Source of the DNA: Modestobacter italicus
GTDB lineage: Bacteria; Actinomycetota; Actinomycetes; Mycobacteriales; Geodermatophilaceae
Assembly (NCBI RefSeq): GCF_000306785.1
Contig: NC_017955.1
Coordinates: 5,022,001 to 5,086,000, forward strand
Direction of reading: 5' to 3'
DNA length: 64,000 nucleotides
Under the pieces are notes generated by a model. It made no database searches. It had not been told where the DNA came from and saw only the letters and a program-made list of their open reading frames with translations. Positions 7,268 to 10,724 of the stretch are shown piece after piece. A program made the position numbers and the translations under genes. The stretch's first letter is position 1; each line of letters opens with the position of its first letter.

Positions 7268-7840
7268 TCAGCGGATCCTCTCGAGTCGGGCGGACATGGT
7301 GGGCCGGAGCGGCTGGTCGCCGGCGGCCCGGTCGATCGCGTAGAGCAGCGCCCCCTCGACGATGCCGTAGAGGCGCTTGGCCCGGCTCGTGTCGGGGTGG
7401 TCGGGGGTGCGGGCCAGCACGTCGGTGTCGAGCTCCCAGCTCGTCGTCGTCCGGGCGGTGCCGACGTAGATCTCCACCAGGCCGGCCGGGGAGCTGACCA
7501 GCAGCTCCACCTCGTCCTCGCCGCGCGGGCGGAGGAACCCGGACTCGCGCTGGTCGGGGCCGACGACCCGGCCGTCGTCGGAGAGCCGCCACGTGCGGGA
7601 GTCGTAGCTCAGGAAGTCCCGGCCGTCGTGGGCGAACCGGACCCACTGGCCGAAGCGGTGGTCACCCCCGGCGCCGGCGGCCTGGCCCTCGCCGTGCCAC
7701 TCGCCCAGCAGCGGCAGCACCGAGAGCAGCTCGTGCGCGACCTCGGGCCCCTCCCGGACGTCGACCGTGTCGGCCACCGGCAGCTCGGTCGGCCCGGCGA
7801 CCGGACCGGTGGGCAGGCCCGGCGGGACGGGCGCGGTCAC
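7268..7840 (-). CDS. nitrobindin-like FABP-family protein (DUF1794) lacking the expected haem-ligand His
   Basis: A 190-residue beta-barrel protein with the family motif GEWHGEGQA, then FAHDGRDFLSYDSRTW and GLVEIYVGTA. Bacterial nitrobindins bind ferric haem and react with peroxynitrite or NO. In the mycobacterial protein the axial histidine lies in a QPLQDHLAAVL-type C-terminal segment; here the aligned segment reads QPLRPTMSARL. The histidine position therefore appears to be threonine. GTG at 7840 overlaps the stop of the upstream 40-residue gene. It may bind another lipophilic ligand, or haem differently. Confidence 0.85.
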   Translation of the reverse strand: MTAPVPPGLPTGPVAGPTELPVADTVDVREGPEVAHELLSVLPLLGEWHGEGQAAGAGGDHRFGQWVRFAHDGRDFLSYDSRTWRLSDDGRVVGPDQRESGFLRPRGEDEVELLVSSPAGLVEIYVGTARTTTSWELDTDVLARTPDHPDTSRAKRLYGIVEGALLYAIDRAAGDQPLRPTMSARLERIR

Positions 7841-7959
7841 CGGGCCCGCCCGGAGGACGACGGGACGTCGCGGCGCGCGAGCCGCCACGCCGAGGCGGCG
7901 AGCCCCAGCGCGACCAGTGCGGTGAGGGTGACGAGCACCCAGGCGGAGACCAGACCCAT
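7837..7959 (-). CDS. small single-pass membrane protein, 40 residues
   Basis: Begins MGLVSAWVLVTLTALVALGL and ends with a basic, Ser-rich tail (RLARRDVPSSSGRAR). One membrane helix spans about residues 3-24, with the basic tail predicted inside the cell. Its TGA shares the GTGA overlap with the nitrobindin-like start, which argues for a real coupled gene. It is too short for routine gene callers. Function unknown. Confidence 0.6.
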   Translation of the reverse strand: MGLVSAWVLVTLTALVALGLAASAWRLARRDVPSSSGRAR

Positions 7960-8124
7960 GCCGTCACCGTAATCCGGCGCGCCGGAGCCCACCGGCCGCG
8001 GGCCTCCTCACCCGGAGGGGCGGGCCCGGGACGTCCGGCTCAAGGACCGGCCGCGGTCGGCCGAAGCAGATGGTGCACGACGGATCCCGAACCCCGCGGA
8101 TCCCCCAGCACCCGAGGTGACCAG

Positions 8125-8976
8125 GTGTCGATCGACGCGGCCGCACGGCCGACCCAGCAGACGGCCGGGACCGTGGCGGAGCGGTTCCACGTGACCAGCA
8201 CGGGCCGGCCCGACGGCCCGGTGCTGCTCTTCGCCCACGGCTTCGGCTGCGACCAGGGCATGTGGCGGGGTGTGCTGCCGCACGTCACCGGCGACCACCG
8301 GGTCGTCCGGTACGACCTGATGGGTGCCGGCCGGTCCGACACCTCGGCCTACGACCCGGAGCGGTACGCCACCCTCGACGGGCACGCCGCGGACATCCTG
8401 GACATCTGCGCCGAGCTCGACCTGCGCGACGTCACCCTGGTGGCGCACAGCGTCAGCACGATGATGGCCGTCCTCGCCGCGATCGCCGAGCCCGACCGCT
8501 TCCGGCAGCTGGTGCTGGTCGCCCCGAACCCCTACTTCCTCGACGACCCGGCCACGGGCTACGCCGGCGGCTTCTCCGCCGACGACCTGGCCGAGGTCGC
8601 CGCCGCCCTGGACAGCAACTACTTCACCTGGGCCGAGGCCTTCGCGCCGGTGATCATGGGCGTGCCGGACGCACCGGAGCTCGGCGAGGAGCTCACCGCG
8701 AGCTTCTGCCGCGTCGACCCCGACATCGCCCGCCAGCTGCTGCGGATCATGTTCACCACCGACTACCGGCCGCTGCTGCCGCAGGTGGCCACGCCCACCC
8801 TGGTGCTGCAGTGCCGCGCCGACGCCATGGTCCCGCCGTCGGTGGGCGACCACCTCCGCGGCGCCATGCCGGACGCGACGGTGGTCCAGCTGCAGGCCAT
8901 CGGGCACTGCCCGCACATCAGCGCCCCGGAGGAGACGGCCGCGGCCATCCGCGAGCACCTGCTGACGCTGCGGTGA
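8125..8976 (+). CDS. RsbQ-like alpha/beta hydrolase
   Basis: A 283-residue alpha/beta hydrolase closely patterned on Bacillus RsbQ. It has FAHGFGCDQGMW (oxyanion loop), the nucleophile serine in VAHSVSTMMAVLA, NPYFLDDPATGYAGGF, the acid in LQCRADAMVPP, and the histidine in AIGHCPHISAPEET. RsbQ generates or handles a small hydrophobic ligand for the PAS domain of the phosphatase RsbP in energy-stress signalling. Here the coupled partner is a PAS-GGDEF-EAL protein, overlapping by four bases (GTGA). Start GTG is preceded by a GAGGTGA site. The small molecule involved is unknown. Confidence 0.9.
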   Translation: MSIDAAARPTQQTAGTVAERFHVTSTGRPDGPVLLFAHGFGCDQGMWRGVLPHVTGDHRVVRYDLMGAGRSDTSAYDPERYATLDGHAADILDICAELDLRDVTLVAHSVSTMMAVLAAIAEPDRFRQLVLVAPNPYFLDDPATGYAGGFSADDLAEVAAALDSNYFTWAEAFAPVIMGVPDAPELGEELTASFCRVDPDIARQLLRIMFTTDYRPLLPQVATPTLVLQCRADAMVPPSVGDHLRGAMPDATVVQLQAIGHCPHISAPEETAAAIREHLLTLR

Positions 8977-10724
8977 GGGACTACGCCGAGCTGTGGGAGA
9001 ACGCGCCGAGCGGCCAGCTCCTGCTGGACGACGACGGGCTGGTCACCGCGGTCAACACCACCTTCACCAGCTGGACCGGGCACACCGCCGACGCACTGCT
9101 CGGCACGCCCTTCCCGCAGCTGCTGCCGATCGGCGACCGCGTCCTCTACACGACGCACTCGCTGCCCCAGCTGGTGGTCACCGGCCGGATCGCCGAGGCG
9201 TCCGTGCAGGTCAACGGGGCCGACGGCCGGCGCCACCCGGCGCTGCTGAGCGCCACCCGCGTACCGGCCGGCCCGCACGGGGCCGAGACCCGGGTGGTGC
9301 TCGTGGACGCCCAGCAGCGGCGCCGCTACGAGGAGGAGCTGCTGGCCGCCCGGCGGCGCGCCGAGGAGTCGCGGGCCCGGATCGCCGAGGCCGAGGCGGA
9401 GCTCACCGCGTTGGTCCACCACGACTCGCTCACCGGCCTGCTCAACCGGCCGGGCCTGCTGCACGCCCTGCACGGCCGCCTCGGCGAGGCGCACACCGAC
9501 CGCGCCGACGGCGCGGTGCCCACCGTCTTCTTCCTCGACCTCGACGGCTTCAAGACCGTCAACGACGACCTCGGGCACGCCAGCGGCGACGAGCTGCTGC
9601 AGGTCGTCGCCCGCCGGGTCCGCTGCGCCTCGCGGGCCAGCGCCGACGTCGCCCGGCTCGCCGGTGACGAGTTCGTCGTCCTGGACGACGTGACGCCCTC
9701 CACCGCCGGCAGCGTGGCCGACCGGCTGCTCCAGGTGCTCGCCGAGCCGGTCGTGCTGCAGGGCGTCGAGGTCGTCGTCGCCGCCAGCATCGGGGTCTGC
9801 TCCGCCGAGGTCCCGGTGCCCGCCGACGAGGCACCGCAGGTCGCCGACCTGGTGCTGCGCCGGGCCGACACCGCGATGTACCGCGCCAAGGCGCAGGGCA
9901 GCGGCCGCTGGGAGGCGCACCGCCCGGGCAGCACCGACCCCGGCAGCGCGCGGCTGGTGCTGCTCGAGCAGCTGCGCGCCGGCCTCCGGGACGGCGAGCT
10001 GCGGGTGCACTACCAACCCCGGATGCACCTGGCCAGCGGCACGATCAGCGGCGTCGAGGCCCTGGTCCGCTGGCAGCACCCCACCCGCGGGCTGCTGCAG
10101 CCGGCGGAGTTCATCGACGCGGCCGAGGAGTCCGGGGTCATCCGCGACCTCGGAGCCTGGGTGCTCACCGAGGCGGTCGAGCAGGCCGTCCGCTGGGACG
10201 CCCGGAGCGGCCCCTCCGGCCTGCAGGTGGCCGTCAACCTGTCCGCCCGGCAGCTCGCCGACCCCGACCTCGTCACCCGCGTCGCCGGCGTGCTGGCCCG
10301 CGCCGGGCTGCCGTCCTCCCGGCTGGTCCTGGAGATCACCGAGACGGCGCTGATGAGCGACCCCGACGGGGCGCTGACCACCCTGCAGCAGCTCCGGGCG
10401 CTCGGCGTGCTGCTGGCCGTCGACGACTTCGGCACCGGTTACTCCAGCTTCACCTACCTCAAGCAGTTCCCCGTCGACGAGCTGAAGATCGACCGCTCCT
10501 TCGTCACCGGCATGACCACCGACGCCGGCGACCGCGCGATCGTGGCCAGCTGCGTGCACCTGGCGCACGCCATGGGCCTGGTCGCCGTCGCGGAGGGCGT
10601 GGAGTCCCCCGGCGAGCGGGACGCCCTCCTCGCCCTGGGCTGCGACCAGGCGCAGGGCTACTTCTTCAGCCGTCCGGTGCCGGCCGACGCCGTCCCGGTG
10701 CCCGGCGGCGTCGTCGGGGTCTGA
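8973..10724 (+). CDS. PAS-GGDEF-EAL cyclic-di-GMP signalling protein
   Basis: A 583-residue cytoplasmic protein. Residues 1-110 form a PAS domain (ENAPSGQLLLDDDG) of the kind usually placed before SpoIIE/PP2C phosphatases. A coiled coil spans about 115-150 (RRRYEEELLAARRRAEESRA). The diguanylate cyclase domain runs about 150-315 with FFLDLDGFKTVND and a slightly altered active loop, AGDEF instead of GGDEF. The EAL domain runs about 325-575 with VEALVRWQHP, VDDFGTGYSS and KIDRSF, so phosphodiesterase residues look intact. There is no clear RxxD inhibitory site. It overlaps the hydrolase by four bases, so the PAS domain likely senses that enzyme's ligand. Its 3' end overlaps the convergent epimerase gene. 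Confidence 0.92.
   Translation: MRDYAELWENAPSGQLLLDDDGLVTAVNTTFTSWTGHTADALLGTPFPQLLPIGDRVLYTTHSLPQLVVTGRIAEASVQVNGADGRRHPALLSATRVPAGPHGAETRVVLVDAQQRRRYEEELLAARRRAEESRARIAEAEAELTALVHHDSLTGLLNRPGLLHALHGRLGEAHTDRADGAVPTVFFLDLDGFKTVNDDLGHASGDELLQVVARRVRCASRASADVARLAGDEFVVLDDVTPSTAGSVADRLLQVLAEPVVLQGVEVVVAASIGVCSAEVPVPADEAPQVADLVLRRADTAMYRAKAQGSGRWEAHRPGSTDPGSARLVLLEQLRAGLRDGELRVHYQPRMHLASGTISGVEALVRWQHPTRGLLQPAEFIDAAEESGVIRDLGAWVLTEAVEQAVRWDARSGPSGLQVAVNLSARQLADPDLVTRVAGVLARAGLPSSRLVLEITETALMSDPDGALTTLQQLRALGVLLAVDDFGTGYSSFTYLKQFPVDELKIDRSFVTGMTTDAGDRAIVASCVHLAHAMGLVAVAEGVESPGERDALLALGCDQAQGYFFSRPVPADAVPVPGGVVGV

What the first reader, a model, noticed from the sequence alone, without database searches (positions are those of the whole stretch)
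8125..10724. RsbQ-like hydrolase coupled to a PAS-GGDEF-EAL protein
The hydrolase shows the RsbQ pattern (catalytic S, D, H; GHCPH segment), and the next gene, overlapping by four bases, begins with a PAS domain of the RsbP type. In Bacillus this pair feeds a PP2C phosphatase; here the output is c-di-GMP synthesis/degradation. This would be a small-molecule-to-c-di-GMP stress switch. The AGDEF variant and intact EAL residues suggest phosphodiesterase-dominated output.
Basis: partly seen in the sequence, partly recalled or inferred. Interest (0 to 1): 0.75.

Follow-up and report, generated by a model that had tools for sequence, protein, structure and literature searches.

The report
RsbQ-type hydrolase with c-di-GMP partner
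Two overlapping bacterial genes encode a hydrolase-like small-molecule sensor and the c-di-GMP enzyme it probably controls; this kind of pairing was described in 2011, and the window holds an actinobacterial member with its own distinctive features.

Summary
Window 8125-8976 encodes an RsbQ-type hydrolase (best solved match B. subtilis RsbQ, E 1.4e-73). 8973-10724, overlapping by GTGA, encodes PAS-GGDEF-EAL. The PAS carries most of the signature of RsbQ-partnered PAS domains. In 394 genomes of the class, 72 of 79 such hydrolases have such a PAS directly downstream, and 72 of 79 such PAS hits lie directly behind such a hydrolase. The pair is a real two-gene module.

It is not a new idea: Nadezhdin et al. 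2011 (PMC3183031) described RsbQ-PAS modules driving phosphatases, histidine kinases and diguanylate cyclases, three of the cyclases with a C-terminal phosphodiesterase domain. I add that 34 of 35 GGDEF-EAL pairs examined belong to one hydrolase lineage with [AS]GDEF, no RxxD site and a changed PAS contact residue (F55 position L/V; aromatic in 79 of 83 phosphatase pairs). In the genus the pair behaves as a present-or-absent cassette; in Arthrobacter the lineage also turned to histidine kinases or lost its PAS partner.

'AGDEF means phosphodiesterase-dominated' is not established: an AGDEF cyclase is active (PMC3974145), and other GGDEF residues are kept. Signal and net activity remain unknown.

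The parts
8114..8120 (+). Shine-Dalgarno-like GAGGTGA before the hydrolase start
   Evidence: read from sequence
8125..8976 (+). RsbQ-type alpha/beta hydrolase, 283 aa, S109/D233/H261
8973..8976 (+). four-base GTGA overlap of the two genes
   Evidence: the same -4 spacing recurs in many relatives
8973..10724 (+). PAS-GGDEF-EAL protein, 583 aa
8973..9308 (+). RsbP-type PAS domain (residues 1-112)
9144..9146 (+). Leu58 in helix F-alpha, equivalent of B. subtilis RsbP F55 (needed for RsbQ binding in PMC3183031)
9309..9419 (+). continuous 37-residue linker helix (residues 113-149)
   Evidence: predicted model; coiled-coil nature inferred
9318..9332 (+). RRRYE junction motif in the place where other PAS domains often have DIT
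9417..9905 (+). GGDEF domain
9660..9674 (+). AGDEF active-site motif; no RxxD inhibition site before it
9966..10676 (+). EAL phosphodiesterase domain, signature residues present

Best explanation
The two genes are an RsbQ-PAS sensing module whose output is a c-di-GMP-metabolising enzyme. A small molecule, still unknown, enters the hydrolase's Ser-Asp-His pocket. The occupied (or reacting) hydrolase touches helix F-alpha of the PAS domain and the start of the linker helix. This changes the packing of the dimeric linker and so the arrangement of the GGDEF and EAL domains, shifting c-di-GMP turnover. Most likely net effect: regulated c-di-GMP breakdown by the EAL domain, with the GGDEF domain binding GTP as an allosteric or secondary activity. 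Shown here: anatomy, family membership, gene pairing, presence or absence as a unit in the genus. Inferred from PMC3183031 and PMC12143880: direct contact and linker transmission. Unknown: ligand, sign of the effect, physiological target.
For: RsbQ is the top solved relative. Seven of the nine RsbP-PAS diagnostic positions fit without a gap at constant offset +3, among them exact L13, L48, E72 and P86; the further conserved P62 also fits (that R, Y and H fit positions 53, 56 and 59 is my reading of the legend's residue classes, the figure itself is not held). R..YE at the PAS end in 157 of 161 paired and 6 of 16 unpaired PAS hits; DIT-like in 1 of 161 and 5 of 16 by the same rule. Pairing: 72 of 79 hydrolases and 72 of 79 PAS hits in 394 genomes; 3 of 3 in the window's own genome; at least 46 of 50 plasmid records by listed coordinates. 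In the genus the pair is present or absent as a unit at 18 of 18 resolvable sites of 23 genomes. Model: PAS fold, L58 in F-alpha, unbroken helix 113-149; best fold match PA0861/RbdA PAS-GGDEF-EAL. EAL-domain signature residues conserved in the 32 sequences aligned, window included, of 35 pairs.
Against: No contact, ligand or enzyme activity was measured. Two diagnostic positions deviate: C10 is S13, and the F55 contact residue is L58. The AGDEF variant leaves the sign of the output open. Sixteen of 80 named relatives have no PAS gene downstream, so the hydrolase can persist without this partner; one class genome (G271) has the PAS with no hydrolase match in the 1.7 kb upstream, its hydrolase lying elsewhere. 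The inter-domain arrangement in the model is uncertain (pTM 0.49).
Confidence: 0.8

Rival explanations
1. Same module, but cyclase-dominated: the hydrolase mainly switches on c-di-GMP synthesis by the AGDEF domain.
For: AGDEF cyclase VCA0965 is active (PMC3974145, abstract and section 17 read). G231, D232, E233, F234, N197, D198, D191 and K306 are invariant across the 32 sequences. Absence of RxxD would remove product inhibition.
Against: First glycine replaced by A or S in 34 of 35 pairs; EAL domain intact; nearest solved full-length architecture is RbdA, known as a phosphodiesterase (recalled; only a listing seen).
Confidence: 0.25
2. The GGDEF domain is a pure GTP sensor that tunes the EAL phosphodiesterase; the hydrolase adds a second input.
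For: No RxxD and [AS]GDEF throughout the lineage, while other GGDEF residues are kept. PA0575 and RbdA are deposited with GTP (entry titles).
Against: No activity data; the motif's D232 and E233 are also kept, which a pure sensor might not need.
Confidence: 0.4
3. The hydrolase is a catabolic enzyme and its neighbour merely shares the operon.
For: 16 of 80 named relatives are solo Arthrobacter-type hydrolases without a PAS neighbour, 85-96% identical to one of them.
Against: Pairing survives changes of output domain (phosphatase, kinase, GGDEF-EAL). Of the 16 PAS hits without a paired hydrolase, 5 carry RRxYE, and four of those five have a partial hydrolase-like match upstream or end at a contig border.
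Confidence: 0.07
4. Plant-like KAI2/D14 butenolide receptor in bacteria.
For: After RsbQ and Olei00960, KAI2/D14-type proteins are the next solved matches (best 194 bits, E 2.2e-56).
Against: RsbQ scores better (251 bits). The gene context is the bacterial PAS partner. No ligand test.
Confidence: 0.08

Closest known systems
RsbQ-RsbP of Bacillus subtilis (PMC3183031)
   Same: RsbQ-type hydrolase gene directly upstream of an RsbP-type PAS protein; helical linker to the output
   Different: Output is GGDEF-EAL, not a PPM phosphatase; F55 contact position is Leu; C10 is Ser
RsbQ-PAS-diguanylate cyclase modules, incl. the Psychromonas ingrahamii protein A1SX34 with cyclase plus phosphodiesterase domains (PMC3183031)
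   Same: Same module with c-di-GMP output; three of the 45 published proteins are cyclases with a C-terminal phosphodiesterase domain
   Different: The paper lists EAL-bearing proteins among those lacking the coiled-coil linker, and A1SX34 has a second PAS in between; here the PAS joins GGDEF by one predicted 37-residue helix. The lineage has [AS]GDEF, no RxxD, F55 to L/V
RbdA (PA0861) PAS-GGDEF-EAL of Pseudomonas aeruginosa
   Same: Same domain order; top fold match
   Different: 29% identity; its partner genes were not examined here
RsbT-controlled RsbU-type sensor on a GGDEF cyclase, Moorella thermoacetica (named in PMC12143880 passages)
   Same: General-stress sensor module coupled to a cyclase by a helical linker
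   Different: Different sensor (RsbU N-domain and RsbT), no hydrolase

Membership tests
RsbQ hydrolases | closest to RsbQ among solved hydrolases | tested here: met
   1wom E 1.4e-73, first of 316 matched sequences
RsbQ hydrolases | Ser-Asp-His triad | tested here: met
   S109, D233, H261 invariant (assignment as the triad recalled)
RsbQ-PAS module (PMC3183031) | RsbQ homologue encoded immediately upstream, PAS most N-terminal | tested here: met
RsbQ-PAS module (PMC3183031) | nine diagnostic PAS residues | tested here: inconclusive
   7 of 9 fit; C10 is S and F55 is L. L or V at F55 is shared by 34 of 35 GGDEF-EAL partners
RsbQ-PAS module (PMC3183031) | no DIT motif at the PAS end | tested here: met
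   window has VDAQ; DIT-like in 1 of 161 paired and 5 of 16 unpaired PAS hits by one rule
RsbQ-PAS module (PMC3183031) | physical hydrolase-PAS contact | not testable with these tools
   no complex prediction offered
RsbP proper | PPM phosphatase output | tested here: not met
   GGDEF-EAL instead
Active diguanylate cyclase | GG[DE]EF motif | tested here: inconclusive
   AGDEF; precedent of activity in PMC3974145
Active EAL phosphodiesterase | catalytic signature residues present | tested here: met
   E362, N422, E454, D484, D485 invariant; K505, E541, Q561 at least 90% in the 32 sequences (roles recalled); activity itself not testable here

The most novel reading that the evidence does not exclude
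Actinobacterial RsbQ proteins split into separate receptor channels. The GGDEF-EAL lineage re-keyed its hydrolase-PAS contact (F55 to L/V), so that three Q-PAS modules in one cell, two c-di-GMP and one phosphatase, stay insulated. In Arthrobacter, members of the same lineage were freed from any PAS partner and act as stand-alone receptors, in the manner of plant KAI2/D14.
Probability: 0.2. Interest if true: 0.65.

Novelty: new member of a known kind. Interest (0 to 1): 0.37.

Why it matters
The signal sensed by RsbQ-PAS modules is described as unknown in PMC3183031. This lineage gives a two-protein version whose output could be read directly as c-di-GMP made or broken down, so ligands could be screened in vitro. 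It also suggests output swapping with the sensor kept: phosphatase to GGDEF-EAL, then to histidine kinase within Arthrobacter (direction inferred from the tree). Module and concept are already published, which limits the surprise.

Tried and rejected
Natural hydrolase-PAS fusion: the Pelagibacterium plasmid hit looked like one in the listing, but the PAS gene only overlaps the end of the match; rejected.

Co-evolution of hydrolase columns with PAS position 58: strong raw association, but only 5 independent shifts on supported branches (7 on all), so no test can reach significance; not claimed.

Decay of the GGDEF domain: rejected, because the other residues named above are invariant.

DIT control: searches used different patterns for paired and unpaired PAS hits (82 gave 0 of 161 DIT-like and 148 of 161 R..YE). 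One search repeats both with one rule; its figures are the ones used.

L095 (G241) first seemed to lack the PAS; that was my parser stopping at an in-frame stop; one search shows the PAS adjacent, and one search counts it so.

Orphan PAS search for the solo hydrolases: 13 genomes with solo copies and one with the kinase pair were searched; 8 of the 13 have no PAS hit at 1e-6, and in the other 5 and the kinase genome the PAS lies beside a hydrolase copy. The genomes of solo loci L183 and L198 were not searched.

Rows dropped before counts: 168 pairs reduced to 161 after identical hydrolases were removed; 21 genus loci cut at 1.5 kb were kept as a separate class, and 6 of them went into the tree. 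Output labels come from home-made profiles; Pfam was run on nine representatives and eight truncated ones. Three of 35 GGDEF-EAL proteins (L047, L157, L199) were not put into the alignment.

Full report
Observation. The window contains two overlapping genes on the + strand: 8125-8976, a 283-residue alpha/beta hydrolase, and 8973-10724, a 583-residue PAS-GGDEF-EAL protein. They share the four bases GTGA. The hydrolase's best match among solved proteins is B. subtilis RsbQ (E 1.4e-73, 251 bits), ahead of Olei00960 (210 bits) and the plant KAI2/D14 type (194 bits and less). S109, D233 and H261 are invariant in seven aligned hydrolases, RsbQ included. By fold, the partner is nearest to the PAS-GGDEF-EAL region of PA0861/RbdA.

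PAS class. PMC3183031 (sections 5, 6 and 11 part 1 read, plus passages) lists nine residues typical of PAS domains encoded next to RsbQ. With a constant offset of +3 and no gap, the window PAS has L16 (L13), L51 (L48), R56 (Q53), Y59 (C56), H62 (Y59), E75 (E72), P89 (P86) and the further conserved P65 (P62). It departs at S13 (C10) and L58 (F55). The B. subtilis RsbP sequence itself was not in hand; the register rests on the published numbers. At the PAS end, where many PAS domains have DIT, 157 of 161 paired proteins show R..YE and 1 is DIT-like; by the same rule, of 16 PAS hits without a hydrolase neighbour at threshold, 6 show R..YE and 5 are DIT-like. Of those 16, five have RRxYE proper: two with a partial hydrolase-like match upstream (G173, G359), two ending at contig borders (G192, G141) and one (G271) with no hydrolase match in the 1.7 kb upstream. 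One more has RRRHE, one RKAFE with DVT, and nine have neither form.

Pairing. In the window's own genome there are three RsbQ-type hydrolases below E 1e-50 and exactly three hits of this PAS at 0.001, one behind each. They are the window pair, a second PAS-GGDEF-EAL pair (L040; Pfam on its truncated copy L002) and a PAS-GAF-SpoIIE phosphatase (L041). In a sample of 394 class genomes, the window's own included, 72 of 79 hydrolase places have the PAS directly downstream, and 72 of 79 PAS hits at E 1e-8 or better lie directly behind such a hydrolase; 70 genomes have both, 4 the hydrolase only, 2 the PAS only. Of the seven unpaired hydrolases, three end at or near a contig border (G141, G192, G142), one has a weak PAS match behind it (G323, E 3.8e-5), one (G271) has its PAS hit on another contig, and two are divergent (G138, G278; about 38% identity). 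In 50 plasmid records with a PAS hit, at least 46 have the hydrolase adjacent by listed coordinates.

Cassette. In those 8 genomes it sits next to a THAP4-type heme-binding protein gene (7268-7888). In 8 others that gene lies beside the epimerase gene which otherwise follows the pair (in G019 only a short epimerase remnant), in 2 the next flank gene found is the rhodanese gene, and neither gene of the pair is found there; 5 are unresolved. The pair is thus gained or lost as one unit, as far as resolved.

Output lineages. Among 161 non-redundant pairs the labels are 83 PPM, 35 GGDEF-EAL, 21 truncated PAS-GAF, 17 histidine kinase, 1 GGDEF only and 4 others. At the F55 position, whose alanine change disrupts RsbQ binding in PMC3183031, GGDEF-EAL partners have L in 33, V in 1 and Y in 1 of 35; PPM partners are aromatic (Y, F or H) in 79 of 83; truncated PAS-GAF have F in 20 of 21; eight of 17 kinases have V. 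In the hydrolase tree (164 rows, quick method, SH-aLRT only) one branch of support 100 holds 59 rows: 34 GGDEF-EAL partners, 16 solo hydrolases, the partners of the 8 valine-bearing Arthrobacter kinases and one with a short partner frame. The change at position 58 therefore follows the hydrolase lineage rather than the output, though a few aliphatic residues also occur outside it (L147, L149, L150, L017, L207, L215, L216). All 34 GGDEF-EAL members of that lineage have AGDEF or SGDEF and lack RxxD. The exception, Solirubrobacter (L228), has GGDEF, RETD and Y58, and groups with phosphatase partners: probably an independent origin. AG[DE]EF was found in 440 of 28,254 GGDEF domains in PMC3974145.

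Mechanism. PMC3183031 cites genetic need for the RsbQ triad and shows two-hybrid and pull-down contact with RsbP, disrupted by F55A. PMC12143880 (passages read) gives an AlphaFold model of two RsbP with two RsbQ in which RsbQ sits between PAS domains and linkers. The model of the window protein has a canonical PAS, L58 inside helix 53-70, and one unbroken helix 113-149 into GGDEF (mean pLDDT 87.6, pTM 0.49). The invariant A113, R116, R117 and E120 at the junction are plausible further contacts; that is inference. On the output side, EAL-domain signature residues and the named GGDEF residues other than the first glycine are conserved. I favour regulated phosphodiesterase activity with a GTP-binding GGDEF domain, but cyclase activity is not excluded.

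Solo hydrolases. Sixteen of 80 named loci (Arthrobacter, Pseudarthrobacter and one unnamed Micrococcaceae bacterium) encode a hydrolase of the same lineage with no PAS in the fetched stretch, 85-96% identical to the L177 copy. Taking L177 as reference, no neighbour is shared by all; one upstream frame recurs in four or five others. In 13 genomes with solo copies, 8 have no such PAS at 1e-6 and 5 have it beside a second hydrolase copy; the one kinase-pair genome searched with them has it beside its only copy. The hydrolase can thus persist without the PAS.

Novelty. RsbQ-PAS-cyclase modules, three with a phosphodiesterase domain, are published (PMC3183031) and restated in PMC12143880. Searches with RsbQ, RsbP, PAS, GGDEF, KAI2, diguanylate, hydrolase, phosphodiesterase, Arthrobacter, Geodermatophilaceae and c-di-GMP listed no paper that I could identify by title or abstract start as describing the [AS]GDEF lineage, the solo copies or Gram-positive kinase outputs; lists were cut (30 of 38, 8 of 118), the library lacks most subscription journals, and I opened only PMC3183031, PMC3974145, PMC12143880 and PMC8325347. 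Hence: new member of a known kind, with lineage features worth reporting.

Noticed in passing
L167, L170, L171, L173-L179, L183, L184, L187, L189, L198, L202: Solo RsbQ-type hydrolases in Arthrobacter/Pseudarthrobacter, 85-96% identical to the L177 copy and without a PAS partner nearby; 8 of 13 such genomes examined have no RsbP-type PAS hit at 1e-6.
   Followed up: partly
L216:4326-6122: Nannocystis pair whose RsbP-type PAS is fused to a Ser/Thr protein kinase domain (Pfam Pkinase), an output type outside the three named in PMC3183031.
   Followed up: no
L190, L201, L204, L208, L210, L211, L214, L218, L222, L230: RsbQ-PAS modules with histidine kinase output in actinobacteria (HisKA and HATPase confirmed by Pfam for L190, L201, L222 only); PMC3183031 reported kinases in Gram-negatives.
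   Followed up: partly
L157:4328-6127 (AP018698.1): Arthrobacter sp. MN05-02 plasmid carries the same pair; the PAS-GGDEF-EAL gene is annotated 'hypothetical protein'.
   Followed up: partly
L164 (WNZI01000003.1): A record titled Vibrio cholerae 35D holds an Arthrobacter-like copy of the module with a short partner frame; most likely a mislabelled record.
   Followed up: no
window 7268-7888 (-): THAP4-type heme-binding (nitrobindin-like, name recalled) gene neighbours the cassette site in the genus; a functional link is unproven.
   Followed up: partly
L264 (G173:C4), L266 (G359): RsbP-type PAS genes with only a partial hydrolase-like match upstream.
   Followed up: no
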